Source of the DNA: a virus
Strand: one strand, 5' to 3'
Length of the DNA: 32,678 bases
IMG/VR virus record: IMGVR_UViG_3300037847_005281
Coordinates: 5,080 to 37,757 of that record
The translations under genes were made by a program, and so were the position numbers. Shown one piece after another: positions 1,345-21,827 of the stretch. Numbering within the stretch: position 1 is the first letter of the stretch; the number at the start of each line of letters is the position of its first letter. Below the pieces are notes generated by a model. It was given only the letters and a program-made list of their open reading frames with translations, was not told the DNA's origin and ran no database searches.

Positions 1345-2233
1345 TCTCAAAGAATACACTTTACTTAGTTTAGGCGATAGTTTTACTTTCGGTCAAGGAA
1401 CTGTTCCACCTCATAATAAAGAAGATCCAATAAATGGACATCTTCATAATTTTAGAGGTAGAAAAACTTGGGTAGAGAATTGTAATAATAATTGCTATAC
1501 TCATTTTCTATCAAAATATTTTAAAAAGACAGTAAATCTTGGTAGTCCAGGAATATCAAATGACTGGTTATATCATATTATGAGAAGATATGTAGATTTA
1601 AATCCCAATGAAAATATATTTGTTTTATTCAGTATAGGAGATCCTCAGAGAGGTTCTTATTTTGATTATGATAAAAGAATGAAAACATATAGGTCACAAT
1701 CTTTTGGATATAATTTTGGACCATTTAATGATAACAGAAAATTTTTAGATGACTATTATACTATTATTAAAAACGATATAACTTTACACTATGATTATTT
1801 TTTATTTAAAAGAAAATTACAAGATTATTTTTATCTAAAAAAATTAAAAAATTTTGTTTTTAGTGCATACGATATAACAGATTATAGATTAAGAAAACAC
1901 AGACACAGATATAAATTTGGAGATGGTATAGGGTTTGTAGCAAGTGAATATATAGGAAGTATCACAGGTGATTTTGAATCATATATGGACAACATCGATA
2001 ATGATATCACAATTATAAACTATCTGAATTTGAAAAAGTTAAGAGCAAAAACAGGATGTAACACAATAGAAGAATACTTAAACAAAAAAGCACTAGAAAA
2101 AGGTATAGACAAAAGACCAAAAGATAGAGTACATTTATCACCATACTTAGATGATGAAGGTAGGCCAGACGGTCATTATTCAAGAGAATCGCACATAGAA
2201 CTAGCAAAATTATTAGAAAACTACGTAGTTTAA
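1334..2233 (+). CDS. SGNH/GDSL-hydrolase-like protein
   Basis: The 299-aa protein begins with LLSLGDSFTFGQGT, matching block I of SGNH hydrolases (nucleophile Ser in GDS). NLGSPGISND near residue 75 resembles block II (conserved Gly). The C-terminus holds DGHYSRESH, consistent with the D-x-x-H catalytic pair of block V. The middle is rich in Tyr, Lys and Asp and is not recognised. Known family members hydrolyse esters of lipids or polysaccharides; the substrate here is unknown. It overlaps def by 11 bases and ends the first operon. The fold call is moderately secure and enzymatic activity is inferred. Confidence 0.6.
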   Translation: MTINLKEYTLLSLGDSFTFGQGTVPPHNKEDPINGHLHNFRGRKTWVENCNNNCYTHFLSKYFKKTVNLGSPGISNDWLYHIMRRYVDLNPNENIFVLFSIGDPQRGSYFDYDKRMKTYRSQSFGYNFGPFNDNRKFLDDYYTIIKNDITLHYDYFLFKRKLQDYFYLKKLKNFVFSAYDITDYRLRKHRHRYKFGDGIGFVASEYIGSITGDFESYMDNIDNDITIINYLNLKKLRAKTGCNTIEEYLNKKALEKGIDKRPKDRVHLSPYLDDEGRPDGHYSRESHIELAKLLENYVV

Positions 2234-2256
2234 CTCACAAACTAGTAAACAATACA

Positions 2257-2264
2257 CATAAATA
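2257..2264 (+). promoter_or_regulatory. T4-like late promoter box
   Basis: CATAAATA lies 42 bases before the next start codon in a gene-free gap. It is followed by a small hairpin (AGGGA/TCCCT, 6-base loop) and then the AAAGGAG ribosome site. Position and spacing fit a late promoter for the small gene at 2299. Confidence 0.55.
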
Positions 2265-2298
2265 TTAGAGGGAAACAACTCCCTGAAAGGAGAATACT

Positions 2299-2460
2299 AT
2301 GATTAAATGGATTAAAGACAGAAGTAAAGAAAGAACAACTTGGGACGGTGCAGTATGTATCGCCTTAGGTCTTATGATTTTATTTATGGCACCATTGGCA
2401 AAAATAGCGGCAGGATTGGCTATCGCTTGGGGAGCCTGGACTATCTGGAAATCAGAGTAA
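2299..2460 (+). CDS. small two-helix membrane protein
   Basis: A 53-aa product with a basic N-terminus (MIKWIKDRSKERTTW) and two hydrophobic stretches (about residues 17-30 and 33-48) separated by a lysine. A strong ribosome site (AAAGGAG, 8 bases from ATG) and a preceding late promoter box support expression. I do not recognise the family; a small phage membrane protein is all that can be said. Confidence 0.7.
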   Translation: MIKWIKDRSKERTTWDGAVCIALGLMILFMAPLAKIAAGLAIAWGAWTIWKSE

Positions 2461-2488
2461 ACACTAACTAAGGGATAATGGCACCCTG

Positions 2489-2692
2489 ATGACTGACGAA
2501 TTCAGGAAAGAAGCATACAGACTCTTTTGGCTCGTAAAGGGCCATTTAGGGTGTCATATTTGGAGCGAAGAAGAAATAATCAAAATGCACGATTCATATT
2601 TTAGAAGATTATGGAATAATGAATCAGGGTGTTTAGATATTTACGAAGAAGGATTTGAAGAAGCATACGAGGCCCTAATTGGAAAAGAATGA
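2489..2692 (+). CDS. hypothetical protein, 67 aa
   Basis: An acidic soluble protein (many Glu) with aromatic residues and two cysteines. It is the first of five closely packed or overlapping small genes (2489-3569), a run typical of phage early or accessory regions. The start lies 28 bases after the previous stop. No family recognised. Confidence 0.55.
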   Translation: MTDEFRKEAYRLFWLVKGHLGCHIWSEEEIIKMHDSYFRRLWNNESGCLDIYEEGFEEAYEALIGKE

Positions 2693-2936
2693 TAAAACAC
2701 CAAGACTTATATTGCTATCAGAATTTTTAGACCAAAGCAAACGCAAAGAAAAAGAAATAGCATATTACGAAAGAGAACTAAAAGCAATCGAAGAAAAACT
2801 CTACTGGCTACGTAGAGAAAAAGACCTTACAGAAACAATAATCAAAATCATCTCAGAAGAAAAAGTATTAGATATCAGAGAAGAAATGGAGAAGAAAATG
2901 ATACAGGATAATGGTGGCCAAAATGACGAAACCTAA
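2679..2936 (+). CDS. predicted coiled-coil protein, TTG start
   Basis: The 85-aa product is dominated by Lys, Glu and Leu in heptad-like spacing between about residues 18 and 72, suggesting one long coiled-coil helix. There is no ATG near the N-terminus; TTG at 2679 is the likely start, overlapping the end of the upstream gene by 14 bases. Its own 3' end overlaps the next gene. Function unknown. Confidence 0.55.
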   Translation: MEKNDKTPRLILLSEFLDQSKRKEKEIAYYERELKAIEEKLYWLRREKDLTETIIKIISEEKVLDIREEMEKKMIQDNGGQNDET

Positions 2937-3150
2937 TACGACATTTAAGTTATCAATACGTGATGTAGAAATCATTGAACACGCACTACGAGCCAAAGCA
3001 GGACGTAGGGGAATGGCTATAGCACAAGGCGAAACTTCTCCACAATTAAAACAAGAAATGATTGAGATACAAGAAGTGTTAGGTAGATTACACGCACAAA
3101 AAAACTTTTATGCAAAATTTAAAGATGGGAGTCCTTATGTCAGTGGGTAA
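2923..3150 (+). CDS. hypothetical protein, about 75 aa
   Basis: The frame has ATGs at 2911 and 2923; the second gives MTKPNTTFKLSIRDVEI. The protein is helical and mixed-charge, with a GRRGMAIAQG turn near its middle. It overlaps both neighbours, consistent with translational coupling. No family recognised. Confidence 0.55.
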   Translation: MTKPNTTFKLSIRDVEIIEHALRAKAGRRGMAIAQGETSPQLKQEMIEIQEVLGRLHAQKNFYAKFKDGSPYVSG

Positions 3151-3322
3151 TATTTTTAAGATTTTTAAGAAAGAAGAAAAGCAAGAAGAAAAGAAAGAAA
3201 TTAAAAAGAAGTTTAATCACAGACAAAGAATAGATGGTGATAAACTTACTGATAAAGAAAAGATGGATAAAGGTTTCAATGGAAAAACCTATACTATAAA
3301 TGGAATTGAATATGACTTCTAG
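3137..3322 (+). CDS. small highly charged protein, 61 aa
   Basis: I chose the ATG at 3137 (MSVGNIFKIFKKEEK) over 3110 because GGGAG lies just upstream of it. The N-terminal half is almost entirely Lys and Glu; the C-terminal half ends in KTYTINGIEYDF. It overlaps the previous and the following genes. Unknown function. Confidence 0.5.
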   Translation: MSVGNIFKIFKKEEKQEEKKEIKKKFNHRQRIDGDKLTDKEKMDKGFNGKTYTINGIEYDF

Positions 3323-3569
3323 CATAACAAATCATAATCTTAATATGATTATACAACAAGAACGTTTACACGAATATTATATAAATAAACAGAGGACAAT
3401 AGAGTACCACAATAAAATCAAACAAGTTTCAAACGATGCCTTAAAGGCATACAATGAAAGACAAGATAGAGTACAGGAGGCTCTACTTGAAATCTACGAT
3501 AGGAATGGAAAATTTGTAAATAAAATATCGCAGATACCCGACGGAAAATCAATAGACATTTTGATTTGA
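3300..3569 (+). CDS. hypothetical protein, 85-89 aa
   Basis: A soluble, mostly helical protein rich in Asn, Gln and Glu; possible starts are ATG at 3300 or 3312. It closes the run of small overlapping genes. Its stop codon lies within the sigma70 promoter that drives the next gene. No family recognised. Confidence 0.55.
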   Translation: MELNMTSSITNHNLNMIIQQERLHEYYINKQRTIEYHNKIKQVSNDALKAYNERQDRVQEALLEIYDRNGKFVNKISQIPDGKSIDILI

Positions 3570-3594
3570 CTTCAAATACAACCTATGCTATAAT
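3566..3594 (+). promoter_or_regulatory. sigma70 promoter, near-consensus
   Basis: TTGACT at 3566-3571 and TATAAT at 3589-3594 are separated by 17 bp. Transcription would begin near 3601, about 40 bases before the exported protein at 3640. Host-type promoters in T4-like phages usually mark early genes. Confidence 0.85.
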
Positions 3595-3639
3595 CAACAA
3601 TTCACTTGGTACTTTAAACAAGTGATAAAGGAGGACTTT

Positions 3640-3987
3640 ATGAAAAAAATAAGCATAATCGGACTGCTAGTAGCAGTCTTCTTTTCTGGTGCCGTAGTGG
3701 CAGAAGAAACAAACGATATCTCTTGGGCATTAACTCTTGAGAGACAAACAGAAGCCAATGCAAACACTGGCGAACTAATGGGAACTAAATCATTGGCAGG
3801 AATTGATATTTCAGCAGGTGGGTTATGGGACATTGACAAATCAGGTCAAGATTTTATTGCTCTGAACAAAACAATGTTGAACTTTAGTCATTCATTATCT
3901 GACCAAGCAACTTTGTATATAAAGAATGACTTTGATACAGAATTTGTCAGAACTGAGTCAACTGTAGGATTAAAAATTACATTTTAA
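3640..3987 (+). CDS. exported protein, outer-membrane/beta-strand type
   Basis: The ATG at 3640 follows a strong ribosome site (AAGGAGG, 7 bases upstream) and gives a 115-aa product. Residues 1-22 form a signal peptide (MKK, hydrophobic core, AVVAEE cleavage region). The mature part alternates polar and nonpolar residues and ends in phenylalanine (VGLKITF), as outer-membrane beta proteins do, but it is far too short for a full porin. An early promoter directly upstream suggests action soon after infection; alteration of the envelope or superinfection exclusion is a possibility only. No specific family recognised. Confidence 0.7.
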   Translation: MKKISIIGLLVAVFFSGAVVAEETNDISWALTLERQTEANANTGELMGTKSLAGIDISAGGLWDIDKSGQDFIALNKTMLNFSHSLSDQATLYIKNDFDTEFVRTESTVGLKITF

Positions 3988-3991
3988 TTTG

Positions 3992-4020
3992 TTGACAAAC
4001 ACGTTGCTATAGTGTATAAA
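3992..4020 (+). promoter_or_regulatory. sigma70 promoter of the tmRNA
   Basis: TTGACA at 3992-3997 and TATAAA at 4015-4020 are 17 bp apart. The -10 hexamer is also the first six bases of a late box (TATAAATA, 4015-4022), so one site could serve both host and phage-modified polymerase with almost the same start point near 4028. Confidence 0.8.
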
Positions 4021-4022
4021 TA
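4015..4022 (+). promoter_or_regulatory. T4-like late promoter box overlapping a sigma70 -10
   Basis: A perfect TATAAATA is superimposed on the sigma70 -10 element of the tmRNA gene. The overlap would allow tmRNA synthesis throughout infection. Confidence 0.55.
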
Positions 4023-4027
4023 TAGTA

Positions 4028-4310
4028 TGTTAACGTTGAAGCAACGTAGACATATACTGGACCTGGGGGCAGTACCCAGCGGCTCCACCAAAATACATTG
4101 AGTCATAGAGGTTGTAGAAGGCTTGACTATTGTTATTTAAACTCAGTGCGTTTCGGCGGGGCCGAACTAGGATCGACAGGTATGAAAGCGAAGTGGAGTT
4201 ATCCGTGGTGACCTACGTTATTCGGTCAAAAACTATAAATGCAAACGATAATTTTGCAAATGAAGATTTAGCCTTAGCGGCTTAATCATTCGGGGTTGGC
4301 AACTGACCTG
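4028..4310 (+). ncRNA. ssrA: two-piece (permuted) tmRNA
   Basis: tmRNA frees stalled ribosomes and adds a degradation tag. The gene has the alphaproteobacterial permuted order. The acceptor piece comes first and ends in CGGCTCCACCA at 4080-4090. The intervening segment is about 4091-4157. The coding piece starts with GGGGCCG at 4158. GGGGCCG pairs with CGGCTCC as a 7-bp acceptor stem with a G-U at the third pair, the alanine identity element. A T-arm (CTGGG/CCCAG) precedes the acceptor strand. The tag frame begins at GCA 4241 and stops at TAA 4283-4285, encoding ANDNFANEDLALAA (AANDNFANEDLALAA with the charged Ala). This resembles alphaproteobacterial tags and ends in the LAA signal read by ClpXP. 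Outer ends are approximate. It has its own promoter, and a ClpX gene lies about 9 kb away. Confidence 0.93.
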
Positions 4311-4337
4311 GCAACAGAACTAGTTGCACTTTTATTT
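4311..4337 (+). terminator. hairpin with T-rich tail after tmRNA
   Basis: GCAAC (4311-4315) and GTTGC (4323-4327) form a 5-bp stem with a 7-base loop, followed by ACTTTTATTT. It is a modest intrinsic terminator or processing hairpin ahead of the ferredoxin gene, whose message may come from read-through. Confidence 0.45.
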
Positions 4338-4347
4338 CGGGTGATTG

Positions 4348-4686
4348 ATGACATATGTAGTAACACAGGATTGTATCAAATGTAAATACACAGATTGTGT
4401 TGAGGTATGTCCCGTAGATTGTTTCTACGAAGGTGATAATATGCTTGTTATCAATCCAGATGAATGCATCGATTGTGGAGTATGTGAACCAGAATGTCCA
4501 GCAGATGCAATCATTCCTGATACTTCCCCAAAATTCACACAAAGACTTTACGATATCAATAAGAAATGGTCAGAAGAATGGCCTGTAATTACTGAACAAA
4601 AAGACCCACTACCAAATGCAGATGCAATGAATCCATCAAAAGGATATGCGGAAAGTAAAGAAAATTTACTAGACGAATATGATTAA
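4348..4686 (+). CDS. fdxA: 7Fe (3Fe-4S/4Fe-4S) ferredoxin, FdxA type
   Basis: A soluble electron carrier of 112 aa beginning [17 protein letters not shown]. It shows the FdxA pattern: Cys9, Cys17 and neighbours with CPVDC form one cluster site, and [12 protein letters not shown] forms the second. The C-terminal extension (about residues 60-112) is typical of bacterial FdxA. The ATG at 4348 is preferred to the TTG one codon earlier. Its stop overlaps the next gene by 8 bases, and an unknown protein, a 2OG-Fe(II) oxygenase and a methyltransferase follow in one tight operon. Phage ferredoxins are known from marine viruses. The partner is unknown; the radical SAM protein at 23223 and nearby oxygenases are candidates by inference. 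Confidence 0.93.
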
Positions 4687-5455
4687 GCAGAAGTACATAG
4701 GTCTTAGTTGGGGCAGAGAATATAGTAGTCTTCCACTAGAAGGTTGGGTTAACTTTCTTACTTTGACTAAACAAGCAGATGATGTTTCTAAAACTAAAAC
4801 TTTTGTATATAAAGCACCAATTAGTACAGTAGTTAATGATTTATTAAGAACTAGTGATTATGATAATTACGTGTCATTTGAACTGCAAAAACAAGTAGAC
4901 AAACTTTTCAGAAAATCAGATATAGTAAAAAGCAATGAAGTAGGTGCTGACCGTAGTGTTAAAATCAATGCATTTGATTTTATACTTGAAACTTTCAGAG
5001 CAGGATATCCAATATTAGATCCTCTTTGTTTTCATTATTTTGGAAACAGTAATTTTGCATTACATCCAGGATATACTAGATTATTATTTGGTAATGTTTA
5101 CAAAGAAGATGTTGATTGTATAATATTTGATTATACAAATGGAAAAGTACAAGATGATTTTAAACATATAAATATCATCACACCAGATGAAACATTTATT
5201 GATGTTAAAGAAAAAAGATATTTGTTTGGGCATACGGGCATAGATAATAGTCCAAGACAAATTCATAAATTATCTGGTAATAAAGATGGAGTAATGTATA
5301 GAGAACTTTTAGGTAAAAATCCAATACCTGATGAACTAGCAGATCCTAGATTATATAATCCTCCAAGAACGTATAAAAAAGAAAAAGAAGTTGTGACAGT
5401 AGACGGTAGAAAAGTACTAGAAAGAAATAAAGGTAGTTGGGAGTTAACACTATGA
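4679..5455 (+). CDS. unknown protein with HPG-x-TRL motif (copy 1)
   Basis: A 258-aa soluble protein of unknown function. Around residues 120-152 it has [13 protein letters not shown] followed by [10 protein letters not shown]. The protein at 9391-10278 has the matching FNIHPGRTRL followed by KTDVILFKP. Both precede a lipid- or sugar-modifying type gene. The shared pattern HPG-x-TRL, then 8-12 residues, then an acidic/hydrophobic strand suggests a common catalytic or binding core. No known family is recognised. The gene overlaps ferredoxin upstream and the oxygenase downstream, so all are probably co-translated. Confidence 0.75.
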
Positions 5456-5997
5456 ATTTTGAAAAGAAAGACTTTGGATATCCTGTCTGGACAGTAGATG
5501 AGGTATTCTTAGAAGGTAAGTTGGCAGACGAAATTTTAAAACAATCAGAACATTTACCATATGTACCAATGGCTGGTATGAGAACTGATAAGACTGGAAA
5601 ACGAATTTGGATGAACCATTATGACTATCCTGCATTTAAAGAAGTATGTATATTTTTTGATAGCAATTATGTTAAACAAAAATTTAGTGATGAATGTGGA
5701 AAAGACTTTACTAAATTAGGTACAAGAATTGAACTTTGTAAAGATGCTAAAGGAAGTTGGTTACATAATCATTTTGACGATAAAGCAAAACTATTTACAT
5801 TACAAATATATCTATCAGATACAGATACAAGTACAAGTTTTATGAAAACAAATACACCTGCTAAAAAGAACTCAGGTTGGTTTTTCGCTAATACAGGAAC
5901 AGAATTGCACGGACTAAAACCACTGTTAAATGATAGAGTTAGTATTATCGTAAATTATGTTGATGAAACTTGGAGAGATAGGTCAGTAATCGTATAA
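5452..5997 (+). CDS. 2OG-Fe(II) oxygenase family protein
   Basis: These enzymes use Fe(II), O2 and 2-oxoglutarate to hydroxylate a substrate. The 181-aa product, starting at ATG 5452 rather than an in-frame TTG at 5437, contains the double-stranded beta-helix signature: H-x-D in LHNHFDDK, a distal histidine in GTELHGLKP and an arginine eight residues later in DRVSIIVNYV that would bind 2-oxoglutarate. Such proteins are common in T4-like marine phages, but their substrates are mostly unknown. It lies between the HPG-motif protein and an FkbM methyltransferase, suggesting modification of a sugar or peptide (inference). Confidence 0.8.
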   Translation: MNFEKKDFGYPVWTVDEVFLEGKLADEILKQSEHLPYVPMAGMRTDKTGKRIWMNHYDYPAFKEVCIFFDSNYVKQKFSDECGKDFTKLGTRIELCKDAKGSWLHNHFDDKAKLFTLQIYLSDTDTSTSFMKTNTPAKKNSGWFFANTGTELHGLKPLLNDRVSIIVNYVDETWRDRSVIV

Positions 5998-6716
5998 TGT
6001 ATAAAGATAGCAATCAACGAACAAAAGATTACTTAGATACTTTTAATCAAGATAAAGTTATACAAAATTTGGTTGGAACGGATAGCCCGGTAATATTTGA
6101 TATTGGCGCAAATATAGGACAAACAATAGAGAAACTAAAGAAAGTTTGGCCTAAGTCTACAATACATAGTTTCGAACCTTTACCAGACGCATATGAAAAA
6201 CTCACGTTTTGGTCAGACTTTTGGAAATCAGTACATACTTATAATATAGCACTTGGTTCAAAAGACGGAACACAAGAGTTTAATGTAAGCAAACATCAAC
6301 CAATGTTAAGCAGTTTCTATGAACTTAATGAAAATAGCAGAGATAGTATTGCAGTAAACAGACCAGAACCTGGTCATAAAGATTTCTTAGAATCTAGTAA
6401 AATACAAGTAAATGTAAGAACTTTAGATAGTTTCACAAAAGAACACAATATACAACATATAGATATAATCAAAATGGATGCTCAAGGAGCCGAACCAGAG
6501 ATATTAGAGAACGGTATAGATTCGCTTAAAAATACAAGAATTATACTAACTGAACTTAATTTCTATGACTTGTACAAGAAAAGTTGTTCTTTCTATGATT
6601 TAGAAAAAACCCTGATTCCCTTGGGTTTCGAACTTTTTGATATTGCTCACGTTAGCAAAAACCCTATGAATGGTCGTACAGATTGGGTAGAAGTAATTTA
6701 TTTCAAAAAAAATTAA
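5997..6716 (+). CDS. FkbM-family SAM-dependent methyltransferase
   Basis: The 239-aa protein has the class I methyltransferase motif I IFDIGANIGQT, the acidic ribose-binding strand HSFEP and the FkbM-typical IDIIKMDAQGAEPEIL segment. Family members methylate hydroxyl groups of sugars or natural products. It starts at the TAATG junction with the oxygenase and is the last gene before a long noncoding stretch. A role in modifying phage or host glycans is plausible but not shown by the sequence. Confidence 0.88.
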   Translation: MYKDSNQRTKDYLDTFNQDKVIQNLVGTDSPVIFDIGANIGQTIEKLKKVWPKSTIHSFEPLPDAYEKLTFWSDFWKSVHTYNIALGSKDGTQEFNVSKHQPMLSSFYELNENSRDSIAVNRPEPGHKDFLESSKIQVNVRTLDSFTKEHNIQHIDIIKMDAQGAEPEILENGIDSLKNTRIILTELNFYDLYKKSCSFYDLEKTLIPLGFELFDIAHVSKNPMNGRTDWVEVIYFKKN

Positions 6717-6759: not shown

Positions 6760-6979
6760 ATAGCATATAAAGAGTTATAAACTTTATATTGTAGTGCATC
6801 GAAGAGGCTGTTACCAGACGGTCGAAGATGACTAGTTAGGGGTGGTACCCAGGCTCAAAGTCTAGCGACCGAGGGTCACATCGCTCTACCGAGCGGAACT
6901 AGGTTCCCTGGATTTAGAATGGTATCTGAGTCGAGGGGTTGGGGGTGAAACCAAGTCCCTCCTACTTTGCTATATTTTT
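6760..6979 (+). ncRNA. structured noncoding RNA of about 215 nt, family unassigned
   Basis: No credible reading frame covers this segment. ATAGCA (6760-6765) pairs with TGCTAT (6968-6973), closing the whole RNA. Inside are ATATAAA/TTTATAT with AGTT/AACT (6766-6789), CGGTCG (about 6819) with CGACCG (about 6866) extended by CTAG/CTAG, a GGGT/ACCC hairpin at 6840-6850, AGCGA/TCGCT, GCTC-TACC-GAGC, and a 3' arm GAGGG/CCCTC enclosing TTGG/CCAA. An ATTTTT tract follows. Start, closing helix and U-tract agree with the promoter, so the limits are fairly firm. It lacks RNase P core motifs and a tmRNA tag; 6S-like or marine environmental RNA families remain possible. There is no protein-coding gene on + downstream, so it is not a leader. 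Confidence 0.75.
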
Positions 6980-7083: not shown

Positions 7084-7171
7084 TGGCTTTAGGGGGAGGA
7101 TTCGAACCTCCACGTAACTATGTTACAACGGATAAACAGTCCGCTATGTCTACCAATTCCATCACCCTAAA
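7084..7171 (-). tRNA. class II tRNA with GUU (Asn) anticodon
   Basis: The minus strand folds into a full cloverleaf of 88 nt. The acceptor is TTTAGGG/CCCTAAA with discriminator G73 and an encoded CCA. The D-arm has GG in GAATTGGTAGA. The anticodon stem is GCGGA/TCCGT with loop CTGTTTA, hence GUU. A long variable arm GTAAC-ATA-GTTAC and T-arm GGAGG-TTCGAAT-CCTCC complete it. The body and long variable arm are those of tRNA-Leu-type (class II) molecules, while the anticodon and G73 are asparagine identity elements; bacterial tRNA-Leu normally has A73. U37 is also unusual, since position 37 is nearly always a purine. It begins 13 nt after the stop of the AsnRS-like gene, so both probably share a transcript. 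Confidence 0.9.
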
Positions 7172-7183
7172 CTAGCAAGTATA

Positions 7184-8008
7184 TTACGAATTTTTATCTA
7201 AAGCAGAAATCATTCTTGTCATACCGATTCCACCACCAACTCTTGGGAAGAAATCGAATTCTAAGAACTTTTCTAATTCTGCCTCTACTCTTTCTTTAGA
7301 GAATAGTTTATAAAGCAATTCTGAATATTCACCATTTGTGATTGTGTGAAAAGTATCACGCATCATTTCTTTATCACAAGAACGTTCCGCGGAACCTATT
7401 GTTTCCATACCTCCTAAGATAACATCTATCTTCTTACTTGTAGCACCACCTTCGTGTCTACTCATATTCCAGAACGGAGATGTCATTTCAGGAAAGTCTG
7501 TAATCATTGTAGCACCGAATTCTTCAAACATTTTAGTTTCGTGTTCGGCTTCCATTTCTGTCATTGCATCTAGACCAAAATGTTTTTGCCAGTCTGCATA
7601 TGTTCTTTCTTCTGGTTTAGGGAATTCTAAGTATTCACATAATTCATATTCCATCTTTTTCAAATCATCATATCCACCTGGAAATTCAAATTCAAACATA
7701 GGGAAGATTATATCGTGTCTACCTGGAATTGCATTTGGTTCTTGTCTATAGGACGTGGAGACACAAAAAAAGCCCTTTGCATCGGGCTTTGAGAGTAATT
7801 CGTGTTCTAACCACATTTGGCCTGTTTGGGGAAGGGGCCAGACTTGGCCTGCATAATTGTATGTTGCTACATTGAACGGATCTTCACAAGCCGCCAATAT
7901 ACTTAATCTGTTTTGAGTATGTACTTCTTCAAAACCTTTATCCAAAAAAAATGACCTTAAAAGGCCAACTGTTTTTGTAAATTTTGTAGGATTTATTAAT
8001 TGCGTCAT
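7184..8008 (-). CDS. AsnRS/AspRS-like class II synthetase catalytic core
   Basis: This 274-aa protein is a class II aminoacyl-tRNA synthetase fold of the Asp/Asn/Lys group without any anticodon-binding OB domain. Motif 2 is at about residues 84-109 (SYRQE, then GRHDIIFPMFEFEF; R88, E90, RH 97-98). The middle has IDVILGGMETIGSAERS, corresponding to the GGSQRE region of AsnRS. Motif 3 is GGGIGMTRM at 258-266, with the ATP-binding Arg265. Known stand-alone cores of this type include archaeal asparagine synthetase (AS-AR) and bacterial AsnA, which make Asn from Asp, ammonia and ATP, and other synthetase paralogues. The co-transcribed GUU tRNA makes a tRNA-linked role plausible. A minus-strand late box is 78 bases upstream of the start. 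Whether it charges tRNA, amidates Asp or modifies something else cannot be told from sequence. Confidence 0.82.
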   Translation of the reverse strand: MTQLINPTKFTKTVGLLRSFFLDKGFEEVHTQNRLSILAACEDPFNVATYNYAGQVWPLPQTGQMWLEHELLSKPDAKGFFCVSTSYRQEPNAIPGRHDIIFPMFEFEFPGGYDDLKKMEYELCEYLEFPKPEERTYADWQKHFGLDAMTEMEAEHETKMFEEFGATMITDFPEMTSPFWNMSRHEGGATSKKIDVILGGMETIGSAERSCDKEMMRDTFHTITNGEYSELLYKLFSKERVEAELEKFLEFDFFPRVGGGIGMTRMISALDKNS

Positions 8009-13168: not shown

Positions 13169-14440
13169 TTGTCAGACAAAAAAGATTATCATTGTTCGTT
13201 TTGTGGAAAACACAAGAATGAAATAAAAACTTTGATTGCAGGTCCGGCTAGTTACATTTGTAACGAGTGTATAGACCTTTGTCATTCAATCGTACACGAA
13301 AGAAAAAAATCTGACAAGATAGGTAAAAATTTAGACGGCGGCATTCCTACTCCCGATGAAATCAAAGAATTTTTAGATTTACACGTGATAGGACAAGCGG
13401 AAGCAAAAGAAGTCCTGAGTGTCGCCGTTTATAATCACTATAAAAGAGTAAATTTACCAGAAGACGATAACGATATAGAATTAGAAAAATCTAATGTTAT
13501 GATGCTTGGTCCATCAGGAACAGGTAAAACATTACTAGGTAAAACAATCGCAAAATTTTTAGAAGTACCATTTGCACAAGTTGATGCAACAACATTAACT
13601 GAAAGTGGTTATGTTGGTGAAGATGTTGAAAATGTAATTCAAAGATTATTAATGAATGCAGATTTTGATATTAAGAAAGCAGAACAAGGTATTATCTATA
13701 TTGACGAAATTGATAAAAAAGCAAAGAAAGGCGAAAACGTTTCAATAACAAAAGACGTATCAGGTGAAGGTGTTCAACAAGCATTACTAAAAATTGTTGA
13801 AGGTACTGTAGTACGTGTTCCACCAGGAGGTGGTCGTAAACACCCAGGTGCTGATATGCTTGAAGTTGATACAAGTAAAATTTTGTTTATTGTAGGTGGA
13901 GCCTTTGTTGGATTAGATAACATCATTAAGAAAAGATTAAACTCAAGTGGATCAATTGGATTTGGTGCAAATGTAGTAGCACCTGAAGAAGATAAAATAC
14001 AAGTTTCAAAAGAAGTATTAGCAGAAGATGTTATTAAGTATGGTATCATACCAGAGTTTATGGGAAGATTTCCTATCTTAGTAGGAATAGATGATTTAAC
14101 AAAAGACGAATTAACAAGAATTTTAACAGAACCTAAAAATAATCTTGTTGCACAATTTAAAAAGATTTTCAAATTAGATGGCGTAGAATTGAATTTCACA
14201 AAAGACGCAATCAAAGAAATAGCAAATCAGGCAAGTGAAAACAAAACAGGAGCAAGAGGACTACGTAGTGTATTAGAAAAATCATTATTAAAAATACAAT
14301 TTACATTACCTAAGTTACGAAAGAATGCAGGTCTTCAATCTGTAGAAATAACGGCTGATTTTATTAAAAGCAACAAAGAACCAATAATGGTATTTAAGGA
14401 ACCAAAATCAACAGGGACATCAAAAAATATAAATGAATAA
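13169..14440 (+). CDS. clpX: ClpX ATPase subunit of the Clp protease
   Basis: ClpX unfolds tagged proteins and feeds them to ClpP. The 423-aa protein is full length (E. coli 424). A zinc-binding domain (Cys 9, 12, 31, 34) is followed by Walker A GPSGTGKT (114-121), pore loop GYVG (147-150), Walker B IIYIDE (175-180), RKH loop (223-225) and the ClpP-contact loop IGFGA (263-267). All functional motifs are intact, so it could dock on host ClpP. The start is TTG at 13169, with AGAGAAAG upstream; no in-frame ATG is near. It overlaps infC, which overlaps rpsU. With a phage tmRNA (tag ending LALAA) and ClpS in the same window, a dedicated substrate-selection system is likely. Confidence 0.96.
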   Translation: MSDKKDYHCSFCGKHKNEIKTLIAGPASYICNECIDLCHSIVHERKKSDKIGKNLDGGIPTPDEIKEFLDLHVIGQAEAKEVLSVAVYNHYKRVNLPEDDNDIELEKSNVMMLGPSGTGKTLLGKTIAKFLEVPFAQVDATTLTESGYVGEDVENVIQRLLMNADFDIKKAEQGIIYIDEIDKKAKKGENVSITKDVSGEGVQQALLKIVEGTVVRVPPGGGRKHPGADMLEVDTSKILFIVGGAFVGLDNIIKKRLNSSGSIGFGANVVAPEEDKIQVSKEVLAEDVIKYGIIPEFMGRFPILVGIDDLTKDELTRILTEPKNNLVAQFKKIFKLDGVELNFTKDAIKEIANQASENKTGARGLRSVLEKSLLKIQFTLPKLRKNAGLQSVEITADFIKSNKEPIMVFKEPKSTGTSKNINE

Positions 14441-15889: not shown

Positions 15890-15895
15890 TATGTA

Positions 15896-15967
15896 CGTTC
15901 AGGCAATATAGCCCGGAAGTAGCATAATGTGAAGGAACGCACTTAAACCTTTAACCGGGAGAGTGCA
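15896..15967 (+). promoter_or_regulatory. glutamine-II (downstream-peptide) riboswitch
   Basis: The element has the conserved core of glutamine riboswitches: CGTTCA at 15896, GGAAGTAG at 15915-15922, and GAAGGAACGC at 15931-15940. CGTTC pairs with GAACG (P1), GGC with GCC (15902-15913), and CCCGG (15912-15916) with CCGGG (15955-15959) as a pseudoknot crossing P1. CCGGGAGAG includes the ribosome site of the 32-aa ORF at 15968, so glutamine binding would hide it. GCACT (15939-15943) with AGTGC (15962-15966) gives a possible alternative fold. The pattern and the small ORF behind it match the class found in marine cyanobacteria, cyanophages and ocean metagenomes. Confidence 0.85.
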
Positions 15968-16182: not shown

Positions 16183-16626
16183 ATGACAAGAAACGCACTA
16201 TCAATTTTTAACCAGTTACGTCCTGTAACTGTAGGCTTTGACAATATGTTTGACCATTTCGAATCTATGTTCGATGGAGACGTATTCTCAGTACCACAAG
16301 TAAACTTTCCACCATACAACATCGTAAAGACTGGTGATTTTACTTATGATGTAGAACTAGCACTTGCTGGTTACTCAAAAGATGACATTACAGTAGATTA
16401 TGCTGATAATGTACTAACTGTAAAATCAATCAAGAAATCTGATGAAAGTAAAGATGAAGACGGTGTTCTTCATAGAGGTATCGCAAAAAGATATTTCTCA
16501 AAAGCATTTACTATCGCAGATGATGTTGAAGTAAGAGGTGCAGAGTTGAAAGATGGACTTCTAAAAATCTCTATGGAAAGAATTGTTCCAGAGGGTAAAA
16601 AGCCTAGAAGTATCGACATCAAATAA
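16183..16626 (+). CDS. Hsp20/alpha-crystallin small heat shock protein
   Basis: Small heat shock proteins hold unfolding proteins for later refolding. The 147-aa protein is IbpA-like: N-terminal MTRNALSIFNQLRPVTVGFD, an alpha-crystallin domain from about residue 43 (PPYNIVKTGDFTYDVELALAGY, DDITVDYADNVLTVK) and a C-terminal SIDIK with the I-x-I motif used in oligomerisation. Full length. A strong AAGGAG ribosome site precedes it, with dual sigma70 and late promoters, and an intrinsic terminator follows. Hsp20 genes are frequent in T4-like marine phages and may help head or tail assembly. Confidence 0.94.
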   Translation: MTRNALSIFNQLRPVTVGFDNMFDHFESMFDGDVFSVPQVNFPPYNIVKTGDFTYDVELALAGYSKDDITVDYADNVLTVKSIKKSDESKDEDGVLHRGIAKRYFSKAFTIADDVEVRGAELKDGLLKISMERIVPEGKKPRSIDIK

Positions 16627-16738: not shown

Positions 16739-17053
16739 ATGCAAACACAAAATGAAAGTGTAACATCAGTTGATACGGCATCGACTATAAAAATAGCAAC
16801 ACCAAAAAGATATTATGTTGTTATGCATAACGATGACCAAACACCTATTGACTTTGTTGTTAAAGTACTTATGGAACTGTATCATCACGACCAACAAACA
16901 TCAGCCGACTTAGCAAATAAAATTCATATAGACCAAAAAGCAATAGTCGGAATGTATAATTTAGAAATAGCGGAACAAAAGGTGGAAGAGACTCACGGGA
17001 CAAGCAGGGCACATGGTTACCCATTAACGGTAACATTGGAACAGGCAGATTAA
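16739..17053 (+). CDS. clpS: ClpS adaptor protein
   Basis: ClpS binds N-degron substrates and delivers them to ClpAP (or ClpCP). The 104-aa protein has a flexible N-terminal extension (about 20 residues) and the core RYYVVMHNDDQTPIDFVVKV, containing the NDD-x-T-P-[IM] substrate pocket, then KAIVGMYNLEIAEQKVEE and PLTVTLEQ. No ClpA is in the window, so it would act through a host ClpA. Binding host ClpA could also redirect that protease. A ribosome-site-like GGGAAG and late box precede it. Its coupling with phage ClpX and tmRNA suggests control over both degradation routes. Confidence 0.92.
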   Translation: MQTQNESVTSVDTASTIKIATPKRYYVVMHNDDQTPIDFVVKVLMELYHHDQQTSADLANKIHIDQKAIVGMYNLEIAEQKVEETHGTSRAHGYPLTVTLEQAD

Positions 17054-17876: not shown

Positions 17877-18629
17877 ATGACAAATCGATCCCAACAAGGG
17901 TATCGAAAATACCAGAACTGGAATGGTTCACGTTGGTTATATACACGTGAACAATCACAATGGCATTTTGATACTAAATCAGATACACAAGACTTTCAGC
18001 CTATTTGCCAATTTATTGGTGATTGGGATTTTTCTGTACAGAAAGCAATGAAACGTGTTGTTGATTGTACTTGGGCAAATCGTAATTATTTCTCAAAAAA
18101 TCCAGATGAAAATAAGAAACCGATGTATTCTGCAAGTGCGGAAGAAATGGACTTGTTTAGAGCGGGTGCAAATCCAAAACAAGAAATATTTCAACGTGCG
18201 GTAGCAGACGATATTCCCATATTTCAAAAAATTGCTAGTCACTTAAAACTAGAAGATCCATCAGTTAAATTTCATAATCAAAGACCTGGACAAACTCTTA
18301 ATTTACATATTGATAATTTTGCTGGTCGTAAAGAACGTGGCAATAGTTTCAAAGAAATAAAAGTAGACAGAAATCCTGACGCAATGAGAAGATTTGTTGT
18401 GATGCTAGATGATTGGAAACACGGACAAGTGTTTATGTTAGGAAATCAAGTTTGGCATCGTTGGAACAAAGGCGATTGTATAACTTGGAACTGGCGTGAT
18501 ATTCCACACTGTACAAGTAATATGGGTTGGGATAATAGACCTATGTTACAGATAACAGGTTGGACTACAAAAGAAACTATTGAAGTTGTAAACAACGGCA
18601 GTTTTGAAAAGAAAGTAGAGATATGTTAG
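17877..18629 (+). CDS. 2OG-Fe(II) oxygenase-like protein A
   Basis: The 250-aa protein carries the 2-oxoglutarate oxygenase signature: metal ligands H144-x-D146 (LHIDNF), distal His211 (DIPHCTSN) and R221 ten residues later (DNRPMLQ) for binding 2-oxoglutarate. It is clearly paralogous to protein B at 20065-20781; both share DNFAGRKERGNSF, MLDDWKHGQVF and NMGW-x-x-RPMLQ. Its stop overlaps the tctA start by 7 bases, so oxygenase and transporter are translationally coupled. The pair flanking a permease is striking. Substrate unknown; 2-oxoglutarate use is inferred from the motif. Confidence 0.8.
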   Translation: MTNRSQQGYRKYQNWNGSRWLYTREQSQWHFDTKSDTQDFQPICQFIGDWDFSVQKAMKRVVDCTWANRNYFSKNPDENKKPMYSASAEEMDLFRAGANPKQEIFQRAVADDIPIFQKIASHLKLEDPSVKFHNQRPGQTLNLHIDNFAGRKERGNSFKEIKVDRNPDAMRRFVVMLDDWKHGQVFMLGNQVWHRWNKGDCITWNWRDIPHCTSNMGWDNRPMLQITGWTTKETIEVVNNGSFEKKVEIC

Positions 18630-20065
18630 AACAAATTTTAGTACTATTAGCAGGTACATTTTATGGTCTCGTTGTAGGTATTATTCCAAGTGCAGGTGCA
18701 ACAACAGGATTAGTTGCTTTGTTTTCTTTTATTGGATATTTTTCAGGAGACCCATATTTAGGAGTAATATTCTGTATGGCAGTTGTTGCCGCCAGTACAA
18801 CTGGTGATACATTTACTGGTGTACTATTAGGAATACCAGGAGCAAATTCAGCCGCGGCTACTATGGTAGACGGATACCCATTAGCAAAACAAGGTAAGGC
18901 AACTTATGCCATTACGGCGGCAGTTACAACATCAACAGTAAATGGATTAATTTGGGGTACATTGACTTTTGGATTATTGCCCTGGTACATACAATTAATG
19001 ATGATATTTGGTATACCTGAATTGTGGGCATTCACAATGTTGGCACTTGCTTGTGTTGGATTTATATCAAGCAAATGGTGGGTAAGAAGTTTAATCGCTA
19101 TTGTAATAGGTTTCTGTTTAGGATATATTGGTACAGATCCATATACAAACGCAGATAGATGGACATTAGGTTGGGCATACTTAGGTGATGGATTACAACT
19201 TATGCCAGTAGTTGCAGGTTTATTTGCTTTTCCAGAAATTATTGCAGGCTTAAGAAGAAGTGATAAAATTTCTGCGGTACCAATGGACAACTTATTTCAA
19301 CAAACAGTTGATGGTGCAAAAGCAACTTGGAAACATAAATGGGACGCATTACGAGGTGGGGCTATAGGAGCATTTATTGGTTTACTTCCTGGCTTAGGTG
19401 GAGCAATGAGTGATTGGTTAGCATATGGTTCTACAGTAGCCGCCCATCCAAATGATAAGTTTGGTAATGGTAACATCAAAGGTGTTATTGGACCAGAAGG
19501 ATCTAATAATGCACAAAAGGCTACATCTATGATACCAACTGTTTTATTCGGTATACCAGGTGCAAGTTTTGCCGCGGTGTTGATGGGCTTGTTTATGTAT
19601 CTTGATTTTGAATTAGGTACACCAGACTTAGCATATGATACAAAATTCTTTGATAGTTTGTTTTATGGATTTATGTGGGCAACTGTACTTTGTGGAATTT
19701 TATGCTTGATTTTTACTAGATATATTGCTATGATAAGTTATGTACCTTACAAATATTATTTTCCGATTCTTGTAGCATTTATTATTTGGGCTTGTGTTCA
19801 ATATACAGGTGGTTGGGAAGATTACGCAGTATTGGCAGGTATGACAGTATTGGGACTTATTTGTAGAAAATGGAAATTTAGTAGACCAGCAATGTTAATG
19901 GGCTTCATTCTTTCAGATAGAATTGAAGGCTTATCAATACAAATGTTAAACTTATATGGTTTTGACAAATTAATGGATAGACCGATATTTTTAGGTTTAA
20001 TGGGATTAATAGTAATCGTTTTTATATGGGGAATATTTAGACGAGGAAAATTGGAGTATGCATAA
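18623..20065 (+). CDS. tctA: TctA-like permease of a tripartite tricarboxylate transporter
   Basis: TctA is the large membrane subunit of TTT transporters, which import citrate and other carboxylates with a periplasmic binding protein. The 480-aa protein is full length with about 11-12 hydrophobic segments. It has both family repeats: GLVVGIIPSAGATTGLVALF near the N-terminus and FIGLLPGLGGAMSDWLAYG near residue 250, plus GVIGPEGSNNAQKATSMIPT and LFGIPGASFAAVLMG. It is coupled to oxygenase A upstream and B downstream (TAATG). A TctC-like binding protein follows B. No standard TctB of about 150 aa is seen; the 76-aa membrane protein at 21835 is the nearest candidate. Confidence 0.92.
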   Translation: MLEQILVLLAGTFYGLVVGIIPSAGATTGLVALFSFIGYFSGDPYLGVIFCMAVVAASTTGDTFTGVLLGIPGANSAAATMVDGYPLAKQGKATYAITAAVTTSTVNGLIWGTLTFGLLPWYIQLMMIFGIPELWAFTMLALACVGFISSKWWVRSLIAIVIGFCLGYIGTDPYTNADRWTLGWAYLGDGLQLMPVVAGLFAFPEIIAGLRRSDKISAVPMDNLFQQTVDGAKATWKHKWDALRGGAIGAFIGLLPGLGGAMSDWLAYGSTVAAHPNDKFGNGNIKGVIGPEGSNNAQKATSMIPTVLFGIPGASFAAVLMGLFMYLDFELGTPDLAYDTKFFDSLFYGFMWATVLCGILCLIFTRYIAMISYVPYKYYFPILVAFIIWACVQYTGGWEDYAVLAGMTVLGLICRKWKFSRPAMLMGFILSDRIEGLSIQMLNLYGFDKLMDRPIFLGLMGLIVIVFIWGIFRRGKLEYA

Positions 20066-20781
20066 TGAATGATGAAAAATGGGGTGATAGTAGATGGGAA
20101 TTTACTAAATCACAATCTCAATGGCACTTTGATGAATTTGAACCAGGCGAAAGAGACTTTCAGTATGTTGGTACTTTTCAAGGAGACTGGTCAAATGAAA
20201 TAGATGAGTGTTTAGGTAGAGTAAAACCAAATACTTGGGCAAATAGAAACATAGAACAAAAGTCAGAAATCTATACTGCCTCACAAGAACAAAACGATTT
20301 AATAAAAGCAGGAGCAGATCCTGACTCACAGATTTTTAGTAGGGCAAATGCGAAAGATATTCCTATCTTTCAACGTATTGCTAACTATTTTGGTATGAAT
20401 GAAACGGCAATAAAGTTTCATAACCAAACAACAGGTCAAATGTTGCATTGGCACATTGATAATTTTGCAGGACGCAAAGAACGTGGTAATTCATTTACCG
20501 AGATTGAGGCTGATAAAAATCCTCACTTAATGCGAAGATTTGCAATTATGTTAGACGATTGGAAACACGGTCAAGTTTTTGCATTAGGTAATACATACTT
20601 TCATCAATGGAAAAAAGGTGAATGTATAACTTGGGAATGGAGAGATATTCCACACGCAACTTGTAATATGGGTTGGAACGATAGACCTATGCTACAAGTA
20701 ACAGGATGGACTACCGAAACAACACATAAAGTTGTTAAGGAAGGACGTAAAAACAAACTCATAAACGTAAACGGAGAGTAA
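20065..20781 (+). CDS. 2OG-Fe(II) oxygenase-like protein B
   Basis: A 238-aa paralogue of protein A (17877), with all proposed ligands kept: HID in HWHIDNF, a distal His in DIPHATCN and Arg in NDRPMLQ. Long identical stretches such as DNFAGRKERGNSF and MLDDWKHGQVF indicate duplication within this lineage followed by divergence. It starts at the TAATG junction with tctA and is followed 2 bases later by the tctC-like gene, so it sits inside the transporter operon. Its product may act on the imported carboxylate or depend on imported 2-oxoglutarate (hypothesis). Confidence 0.8.
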   Translation: MNDEKWGDSRWEFTKSQSQWHFDEFEPGERDFQYVGTFQGDWSNEIDECLGRVKPNTWANRNIEQKSEIYTASQEQNDLIKAGADPDSQIFSRANAKDIPIFQRIANYFGMNETAIKFHNQTTGQMLHWHIDNFAGRKERGNSFTEIEADKNPHLMRRFAIMLDDWKHGQVFALGNTYFHQWKKGECITWEWRDIPHATCNMGWNDRPMLQVTGWTTETTHKVVKEGRKNKLINVNGE

Positions 20782-20783
20782 CT

Positions 20784-21827
20784 ATGAGAAAAACATTAAT
20801 AGCATTAGCCGTATTTTTTGGCTTAACAACATCAGCATTCGCTGAATACATTATGGTTATCCCTCAGAAGCCCGGTGGCGGAACTTCTGTATGGGGTGAA
20901 ATCGTAGCAGGACAATTAGAAAAACACTTAGGTGAAAAGATTGTTCTAAAACATTATCCAGGTGCAAGAGATATTCCTGGTTTTAACAAATGGCATAACA
21001 CTATGCGTGATGATGACAAAGTAATTATGGTATCACACGGTGGTAACGGTGTTGCATTCTTACAAGAGAATGTAGACTACAATTATGCTGAATATGAATC
21101 AATCGGATTGATGAACTTGAATATTATCGCTGGTAAATTAAAAGGCGCTGATATGACAAACCCATCATTTGCGGCAGGTTCAGGTATGGTTCCAGAGGCA
21201 TTTGCAATGACAATGCTTATCTGTGGTCCAGATAAATCAATCGCAGAATATACTGCTTGTTTCAAAGAACACGTAACTTGGGTTCCAGGAATGAGTGGCG
21301 GTGAACGTAGACTTGCTTTCAAAAGAGGCGAACTTACAGGTACACGTGAAAATCCAGCGGCTTATAAAAAGCACGTAGGACCAAATGAAAATGCAGAACT
21401 TTGGTTTCATCACGGTATTTTACAACCAGATGGTTCACACGCAGATGATCCTAACTATCCAGGATTTCAATTCGAAATTTTATTCGAAGCGAAATGGGGT
21501 GTAGCACCAAGTGGTGAAATGTATGATGCATACAAACTTGTGAAATCATTCCGTGATGGTTTACAAAAAGCATTATGGGTTAACGCAGGTAATCCAAATG
21601 CACCAGAACTAATTGCGGCAATGGAAAAAATGGCGGCAGATCCAGAATCAACAAAAGTAATTGCTAAAAAAGTTGGTAATTATGAATGGAAAATCGGTTC
21701 TGACGGAAATGCTCAACGTGATACTCTTATGACATTTATTACAGAAGATGCACTAAGAGGTCTTGTTGAGTTTAATACTAACGCATTAGGACTTAAGTCT
21801 GTATTCAAAGAAAATCTTGTAAAGTAA
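20784..21827 (+). CDS. tctC: TctC-like periplasmic binding protein
   Basis: The 347-aa product has a signal peptide (MRKTLIALAVFFGLTTSAFA) and, directly after it, YIMVIPQKPGGGTSVWGEIVAGQLEKHLG, corresponding to the PGG-x-[TS]-D ligand-binding start of TctC/Bug solute receptors, then a PGA motif (HYPGARDIPGF) like the family's N-R-PGAGG. The remainder is less conserved than in bacterial TctC. The family delivers carboxylates to TctA in the inner membrane. It is the last of the four cassette genes. A GGAG ribosome site precedes it. Confidence 0.8.
   Translation: MRKTLIALAVFFGLTTSAFAEYIMVIPQKPGGGTSVWGEIVAGQLEKHLGEKIVLKHYPGARDIPGFNKWHNTMRDDDKVIMVSHGGNGVAFLQENVDYNYAEYESIGLMNLNIIAGKLKGADMTNPSFAAGSGMVPEAFAMTMLICGPDKSIAEYTACFKEHVTWVPGMSGGERRLAFKRGELTGTRENPAAYKKHVGPNENAELWFHHGILQPDGSHADDPNYPGFQFEILFEAKWGVAPSGEMYDAYKLVKSFRDGLQKALWVNAGNPNAPELIAAMEKMAADPESTKVIAKKVGNYEWKIGSDGNAQRDTLMTFITEDALRGLVEFNTNALGLKSVFKENLVK

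What the first reader, a model, noticed from the sequence alone, without database searches (positions are those of the whole stretch)
7084..8008. Synthetase-like catalytic core co-transcribed with a Leu-shaped tRNA carrying an Asn anticodon
Seen: a 274-aa class II core of the AsnRS/AspRS group without anticodon-binding domain, and 13 nt after it an 88-nt class II tRNA with long variable arm, GUU anticodon, U37 and G73. Known: bacterial tRNA-Asn is class I with a short variable loop; tRNA-Leu has A73; GUU and G73 are Asn identity elements; stand-alone cores can be asparagine synthetases. Inference: a Leu-type tRNA may have been converted to a private tRNA-Asn, or to a tRNA decoding Asn codons with another amino acid, served by the phage core enzyme. 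Either would be a new phage decoding system, in a genome rich in AAT codons.
Basis: partly seen in the sequence, partly recalled or inferred. Interest (0 to 1): 0.92.

Follow-up and report, generated by a model that had tools for sequence, protein, structure and literature searches.

The report
Phage pyrimidine-type enzyme with private tRNA
Hundreds of marine phages carry an asparagine-tRNA-synthetase-like enzyme whose bacterial relatives sit among pyrimidine-synthesis genes, inseparably followed by an odd tRNA that has every tag for being loaded with asparagine but is built unlike a tRNA for reading codons, which suggests a tRNA used for metabolism rather than for decoding.

Summary
A class II tRNA (anticodon GUU, G73, U1-A72, Leu-like body) follows the 274-aa AsnRS-like core in 164 of 182 distinct viral genes collected. 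All 164 keep GUU, G73 and U1-A72. Among 80 loci found by tRNA pattern alone, 78 have the core just upstream and 2 are cut by a contig end. Decoding positions are not kept: 37 is a pyrimidine in 144/164 and 33 is not U in 15/164, against 0/83 for other tRNAs of these phages.

The enzyme is older than the tRNA. Cellular relatives (52-62% identical) lack the private tRNA, and many sit beside pyrD, pyrE and pyrF. In one bacterial order all 7 core-bearing genomes lack aspartate carbamoyltransferase, against 16 of 143 without the core. Some phages add divergent PyrD- and PyrE-like genes, with the tRNA inside the operon.

Best reading: a pyrimidine-pathway enzyme that uses asparagine, plus a dedicated, probably non-decoding tRNA charged (and amidated) by host enzymes to supply Asn. 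The enzyme's pyrimidine role is well supported; the tRNA's role is inferred.

The parts
7184..8008 (-). Core enzyme gene: 274-aa stand-alone class II AsnRS-like catalytic domain (PHROG 29758)
   Evidence: AF2 model pLDDT 92; Foldseek top hits AsnRS/AspRS
7172..7183 (-). 12-nt spacer between the stop codon and the tRNA 5' end; spacing is 4-12 nt in most relatives
7084..7171 (-). Class II (long variable arm) tRNA with GUU anticodon, U1-A72, G73, encoded CCA (7084-7086)
7134..7138 (-). Anticodon-loop bases: U33 at 7138, G34U35U36 at 7137-7135, U37 at 7134 (37 is a pyrimidine in 144/164 relatives)
7087..7087 (-). Discriminator base G73, invariant in 164/164 relatives

Best explanation
The enzyme belongs to a family of stand-alone AsnRS-like cores that replaces the first committed step(s) of pyrimidine synthesis (PyrB, in some lineages apparently also PyrC) and, from its AsnRS-like pocket, probably binds asparagine. 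One possible reaction is Asn + bicarbonate + ATP to dihydroorotate. Marine phages carry it as an auxiliary metabolic gene. Their dedicated tRNA is a metabolic Asn carrier: GUU and G73 let the host AsnRS or non-discriminating AspRS charge it, U1-A72 (with no U20a) lets GatCAB amidate Asp to Asn, and the altered positions 33/37 and class II body keep it out of translation, so that Asn is delivered to the enzyme, directly or after release. Shown by sequence: conservation, linkage, pyrimidine context, PyrB absence, identity elements, anticodon-loop anomaly. Inferred: the reaction, that Asn is the substrate, and that the tRNA feeds the enzyme.
For: Cellular relatives in 129 stretches of GTDB genomes. 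Of 80 loci, cluster 0 (pyrE/pyrF) is near the core in 23 and cluster 1 (mostly pyrD) in 20, confirmed by model for Pasteurella atlantica pyrD and pyrF. PyrB (TIGR00670) has no hit in 15/18 core genomes; in 150 genomes of one order all 7 with the core lack it against 16/143 without, P=8e-7. PyrC models: no hit in 11/18 (TIGR00857) and 16/17 (TIGR00856, the other weak). Phage loci: PyrD-like gene beside or near the core in 11 loci, a PyrE-like PRTase near it in about 28, and in L009 PyrD-like, core, tRNA and PRTase run on one strand with 17 nt between tRNA and PRTase. The phage PyrD/PRT are closest to those of proteobacterial core operons among the cellular loci. tRNA: GUU, G73, U1-A72 164/164 against 2/83 U1-A72 in other tRNAs; position 20a is A, not U. 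These are the published determinants for AsnRS/ND-AspRS and GatCAB (PMC9976931). Position 37 pyrimidine, 110 distinct tRNAs vs 83 others, P=3e-40. AsnRS-type Glu and Arg in the pocket.
Against: Three to four phage lineages keep the enzyme at 85-98% identity but show no tRNA in the available contigs (L001, L004, L006, L033, L030/L074), and cells do without it, so the enzyme does not strictly need it. No residue change marks tRNA-bearing enzymes as tRNA-binding, and they are more acidic. Whether SAR11/Prochlorococcus hosts lack free Asn synthesis was not testable here. PyrD/PyrE-like genes were seen near the core in only a minority of viral loci (flanks of 2-5 kb), not in this window. Several CPR loci lie beside dus/dnaX rather than pyr genes.
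Confidence: 0.38

Rival explanations
1. Private decoding pair: the core activates Asn (or another amino acid) and charges this tRNA, recognised by its body and acceptor end because the core has no anticodon-binding domain; the tRNA then reads AAU/AAC codons.
For: The tRNA never occurs without the enzyme (78/80, 2 cut by contig ends) while the enzyme can occur without the tRNA, the asymmetry expected if the tRNA depends on the enzyme. GUU is invariant although the enzyme cannot read it. CCA is encoded where the other phage tRNAs encode it. AsnRS-like pocket and motif 2 loop kept.
Against: Pyrimidine context and PyrB replacement of the family; U33 lost in 15/164 and pyrimidine 37 in 144/164, against 0/83 in the other tRNAs; no tRNA-specific adaptation in the enzyme; the variable arm has no conserved sequence and the tRNA varies greatly in length (82-106 nt).
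Confidence: 0.2
2. Pyrimidine enzyme plus an independent phage tRNA-Asn: the enzyme works on free substrates only, and the tRNA is a translation supplement or a decoy/resistant tRNA against anticodon nucleases, charged by the host and merely kept in the same transcript.
For: Phage tRNAs with anticodon-loop mutations that evade host nucleases are described (PMC10264068); GUU/G73 suffice for host charging (PMC9976931); enzyme without tRNA exists.
Against: Mere cargo does not explain why this tRNA is never found without the enzyme across two diverged phage groups; other tRNAs of the same phages show no such loop changes (0/83); a decoding tRNA should keep U33 and purine 37.
Confidence: 0.2
3. Regulatory tRNA: the tRNA (charged or uncharged) binds the core and reports Asn supply, switching phage pyrimidine synthesis; it is neither substrate nor decoder.
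For: Tight co-transcription, tRNA dependent on enzyme but not the reverse, relaxed decoding positions.
Against: No direct evidence; strict U1-A72, GUU and G73 are more than binding to a core without anticodon domain would need.
Confidence: 0.1
4. The core is a tRNA-independent asparagine synthetase like archaeal AS-AR or AsnA, supplying free Asn.
For: Single catalytic domain without anticodon-binding domain; archaeal asparagine synthetase 3P8T is among the PDB profile hits; motif 3 has T instead of D/E before the Arg.
Against: Profile match to AsnRS is far stronger (2XGT 1.7e-12) than to AS-AR (3P8T 0.0015, partial); AsnB-family genes over the cut-off in 6 of 8 and AsnA in 1 of 8 core genomes; the neighbours are pyrD/E/F and PyrB is missing.
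Confidence: 0.08

Closest known systems
Asparaginyl-tRNA synthetase (class IIb, e.g. human 8H53, Brugia 2XGT)
   Same: Fold of the catalytic core (Foldseek TM 0.79), motif 2 RxE..RH, Glu (SGQL..E / TGQMWLE) and Arg of the Asn pocket
   Different: No N-terminal anticodon-binding domain, far below the family cut-off, 'RLSILAACEDP' loop, ETIGSAER instead of EIIGGSQR, motif 3 GGGIGxTR; pyrimidine neighbours in cells
Archaeal asparagine synthetase AS-AR (3P8T) and AsnA
   Same: Stand-alone class II core that is an AspRS/AsnRS paralog and makes a metabolite
   Different: Weak, partial sequence match; different gene neighbourhood; co-encoded tRNA in phages
tRNA-dependent asparagine formation (ND-AspRS + GatCAB + tRNA-Asn; review PMC9976931)
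   Same: The tRNA carries its published determinants: GUU, G73, U1-A72, no U20a
   Different: Class II body; decoding positions 33/37 not kept; linked to a metabolic enzyme rather than used for protein synthesis (inferred)
Phage tRNAs with anticodon-loop mutations that evade tRNA nucleases (van den Berg et al. 2023, PMC10264068)
   Same: Phage tRNA with altered anticodon loop
   Different: Obligate enzyme partner; only this tRNA in these phages is altered; also acceptor and body are chimeric

Membership tests
Asparaginyl-tRNA synthetase | Class II catalytic core with motifs 1-3 | tested here: met
   Pfam tRNA-synt_2 1.5e-16, model and fold search, alignment
Asparaginyl-tRNA synthetase | Asn-specific pocket (Glu in place of the AspRS Lys, conserved Arg) | tested here: met
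   QTGQMWLE aligned with SGQLNGE; GSAER with GGSQR; E68 and R209 invariant
Asparaginyl-tRNA synthetase | N-terminal OB-fold anticodon-binding domain and full-length family score | tested here: not met
   274 aa, core only; TIGR00457 has no match in the record holding the window; best NCBIfam score 28.5 vs cut-off 353
Asparaginyl-tRNA synthetase | Aminoacylates tRNA with Asn | not testable with these tools
   needs purified enzyme and transcript
AS-AR / AsnA asparagine synthetase | Closer by sequence profile to AS-AR than to AsnRS | tested here: not met
   3P8T 0.0015 partial versus AsnRS 1.7e-12
AS-AR / AsnA asparagine synthetase | Makes Asn from Asp, ATP, ammonia | not testable with these tools
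   biochemistry
Replacement of PyrB (pyrimidine pathway) | Gene lies among pyr genes | tested here: met
   cellular loci; phage loci in part; not in this window
Replacement of PyrB (pyrimidine pathway) | Occurs where canonical pyrB is missing | tested here: met
   15/18 genomes with no hit, 7/7 vs 16/143 in one order; near relatives are not independent
Replacement of PyrB (pyrimidine pathway) | Forms carbamoyl-aspartate or dihydroorotate | not testable with these tools
   biochemistry or complementation
tRNA-Asn | GUU anticodon, G73, U1-A72 | tested here: met
   164/164
tRNA-Asn | Class I body, short variable loop | tested here: not met
   5-bp variable arm, 82-106 nt
tRNA-Asn | U33 and purine at 37 as in decoding tRNAs | tested here: not met
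   window U33 but U37; relatives: non-U33 15/164, pyrimidine 37 144/164
tRNA-Leu | Class II Leu-type body | tested here: met
   best cellular class II matches of the covariance model are tRNA-Leu, 58-74 bits
tRNA-Leu | A73 and a Leu anticodon | tested here: not met
   G73, GUU
Nuclease-evading phage tRNAs | Anticodon-loop changes in the phage's tRNAs generally | tested here: not met
   0/83 other tRNAs of these loci altered at 33 or 37

The most novel reading that the evidence does not exclude
A metabolic tRNA-enzyme pair of phages: a chimeric tRNA that is loaded with Asn by host enzymes but barred from translation, feeding an AsnRS-derived enzyme that makes a pyrimidine precursor by a route bypassing aspartate carbamoyltransferase and dihydroorotase.
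Probability: 0.3. Interest if true: 0.95.

Novelty: categorically new. Interest (0 to 1): 0.86.

Why it matters
Two things would be new. First, an unannotated enzyme family of CPR bacteria, Bacteroidetes, some Proteobacteria and phages appears to replace the first step(s) of pyrimidine synthesis, a textbook pathway. Second, an abundant group of marine phages keeps a tRNA with full Asn identity whose decoding positions are not conserved and which is obligately linked to that enzyme; this would be a tRNA dedicated to metabolism and encoded by a virus. Both are directly testable with small proteins and transcripts from cultured phages (P-SSM2, P-SSM7).

Tried and rejected
Pseudogene or chance tRNA: rejected (covariation and linkage). 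Pair limited to this phage: rejected. AS-AR-like Asn synthetase as the main reading: weaker. A class II GUU tRNA hidden in cellular core genomes: none found; all inspected class II covariance-model hits were Leu, Ser or Tyr, and GUU hits were ordinary class I. The tRNA elsewhere in records with the core but no adjacent tRNA (37-89 kb records, giant phages W01/W02): no class II GUU tRNA found. Enzyme residues marking tRNA binding: only a few conservative differences. First DNA pattern scan had a counting error and found nothing; corrected. PyrD-like and PRT genes in cultured cyanophages: no PRT and no close PyrD. Literature searches found no paper describing this pair or the enzyme; open-access PMC only, so absence is weak evidence.

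Full report
What is there. The window holds, on the minus strand, a 274-aa ORF (7184-8008) and, 12 nt after its stop codon, an 88-nt tRNA (7084-7171) with encoded CCA. The protein matches Pfam tRNA-synt_2 over its whole length (1.5e-16), no NCBIfam equivalog near its cut-off and PHROG 29758 of unknown function.

Conservation. From the loci fetched I extracted 182 distinct genes (window included); 164 have a class II tRNA on the same strand 4-172 nt downstream, mostly 4-12 nt. The rest are contig ends, two tRNAs missed by the regular expression (L194, L208), a few close relatives without tRNA and distant giant-phage homologs. Cultured cyanophages P-SSM2, P-SSM5 and P-SSM7 have the pair, annotated 'tRNA ligase' and tRNA-Asn (in P-SSM2 the tRNA annotation is misplaced, ARAGORN finds it at L082:6813-6900). 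In the reverse test, 80 loci were taken by tRNA pattern alone: 78 have the core just upstream and the other two are cut at a contig end. So the tRNA is not found without the enzyme.

The tRNA. A covariance test on 26 diverse sequences supports acceptor, D, anticodon, variable and T stems (98.6% of cells paired, 20 of 25 pairs with double changes). The model's best hits in eight cellular genomes are all tRNA-Leu, 58-74 bits, so the body is Leu-like. Invariant in 164/164: GUU, G73 and U1-A72; the base after position 20 is A, so no U20a. According to the review PMC9976931, the anticodon and G73 are enough to transplant Asn identity into another tRNA body, ND-AspRS uses anticodon and discriminator, GatCAB requires U1-A72 and is repelled by U20a, and t6A37 is an antideterminant against AspRS in yeast. 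In contrast, position 37 is U/C/A in 138/6/20 and position 33 is U/C/G in 149/13/2; C33 occurs in both phage groups. All 83 other distinct tRNAs in the same phage loci have U33 and a purine at 37 (P=3e-40 for position 37 among 110 distinct tRNAs). CCA is encoded in the group whose other tRNAs encode it (77/77) and not in the cyanophage group, where 1 of 6 others does. The molecule therefore looks like a properly matured tRNA that keeps charging and amidation signals and not decoding signals. That it is charged at all is inference.

The enzyme. AlphaFold2 with 47 family members gives pLDDT 92; the best solved structures are AsnRS and AspRS (human AsnRS with Asn-AMP, TM 0.79). A profile finds AsnRS 2XGT at 1.7e-12 and the archaeal asparagine synthetase 3P8T only at 0.0015. 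Alignment shows the AsnRS-type Glu (TGQMWLE) and the conserved Arg, an intact motif 2 with its tRNA-side loop, but also family-specific features: RLSILAACEDP in place of the flipping loop, ETIGSAER, and motif 3 GGGIGxTR. There is no anticodon-binding domain, so the core itself is unlikely to be what conserves GUU.

Cellular relatives change the picture. GTDB genomes hold 129 matching stretches: CPR bacteria, Bacteroidetes, Midichloriaceae, Pasteurella atlantica (complete chromosome) and others; a few entries (L251-L253) are evidently phage contigs binned into MAGs. Of 80 loci, 23 have pyrE/pyrF and 20 a cluster that is mostly pyrD close by; in P. atlantica the order is pyrD(-), core, pyrF, PRTase. 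Canonical PyrB has no hit in 15 of 18 core genomes (the others are two weak matches and one partial match in a fragmented MAG). In 150 genomes of one order, all 7 with the core lack PyrB against 16 of 143 without it (P=8e-7; close relatives are not independent). PyrC models give no hit in 11 of 18 and 16 of 17; the Bacteroidetes do have PyrC-like genes. No class II GUU tRNA was found in eight core genomes. Hence the family most likely replaces PyrB and, where PyrC is missing too, may deliver dihydroorotate.

Phages do the same. A short PyrD-like gene lies beside or near the core in 11 viral loci: in place of the tRNA in L004/L005, directly upstream in L252/L469/L473/L475, further upstream in L009/L011/L095/L483 and 1 kb downstream in L260 (Pfam DHO_dh 2.4e-17 for L004). 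A divergent PRTase homologous to that of the Pasteurella and Midichloriaceae operons (about 40-44% identity) lies near the core in about 28 viral loci. In L009 PyrD-like (3701-4375), core (5001-5819), tRNA (5833-5917) and PRTase (5935-6327) run in one direction: the tRNA sits inside a pyrimidine operon. In P-SSM2 the core lies in a stretch with mazG, purH and nrdA. The tree places tRNA-bearing phage enzymes in one clade with the proteobacterial operon enzymes, nested in the larger cellular family, with several losses of the tRNA.

Mechanism. The enzyme half, pyrimidine synthesis, is well supported (I would put it near 0.7). For the tRNA the evidence fits best with an Asn carrier: it keeps exactly the signals for host charging and for Asp-to-Asn amidation and drops those for decoding. 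If the enzyme consumes Asn (its pocket is AsnRS-like; Asn plus CO2 has the atoms of the dihydroorotate ring, side-chain amide N becoming N3), a phage in a host that makes Asn only on tRNA would need such a carrier; cells with the core mostly have AsnB or AsnA over the cut-off (6 of 8) and no private tRNA. That the phage hosts lack free Asn synthesis is a guess I could not test. Against an obligatory role stand close relatives without the tRNA (L001 is 98% identical) and the absence of tRNA-specific residues.

Novelty. The enzyme family has no functional annotation in the libraries searched, the chimeric tRNA has no described counterpart that I found, and their obligate pairing is not a known kind of system. 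Open-access literature searches found nothing on either, which is weak evidence of absence.

Noticed in passing
window 3973-4376 (+): A phage-encoded tmRNA: Rfam alpha_tmRNA 141 bits and permuted tmRNA 124 bits, ARAGORN tag ANDNFANEDLALAA; the phage also has ClpX (13169-14440) and a ClpS-like ORF (16739-17053), so a phage copy of the tagging and proteolysis route is conceivable.
   Followed up: no
window 6766-6971 (+): manA RNA motif (64.5 bits) just downstream of the core-tRNA unit, on the other strand.
   Followed up: no
window 15894-15943 (+): Glutamine riboswitch aptamer (44.6 bits) with an Hsp20-like ORF (16183-16626) as the next gene, not a nitrogen-assimilation gene.
   Followed up: no
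L296 (Pasteurella atlantica) 1604-4892; L266, L261, L264 and others: Cellular pyrimidine operons with the AsnRS-like core and no PyrB, in several genomes no recognised PyrC: a candidate alternative route to dihydroorotate worth its own study.
   Followed up: partly
L008, L013, L037, L053 and other loci, variable arm of the GUU tRNA: Many relatives have 97-106-nt versions with a recurrent insert (TGTACTGCAATATATTTA) in the variable arm; ARAGORN misreads these as tRNA-Asp/Glu/Ile or four-base anticodons.
   Followed up: partly
L085 (LR756501, 735 kb) and L086 (LR756508, 484 kb): Giant phages carry diverged core homologs (44-49% identity) without the class II GUU tRNA; L085 lies beside a RimK-like ATP-grasp gene and a family B DNA polymerase.
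   Followed up: partly
window 18623-21827 (+): TctA/TctC-like tricarboxylate transporter genes interleaved with a pair of related ORFs (17877-18629 and 20065-20781), an unusual set for a phage.
   Followed up: no
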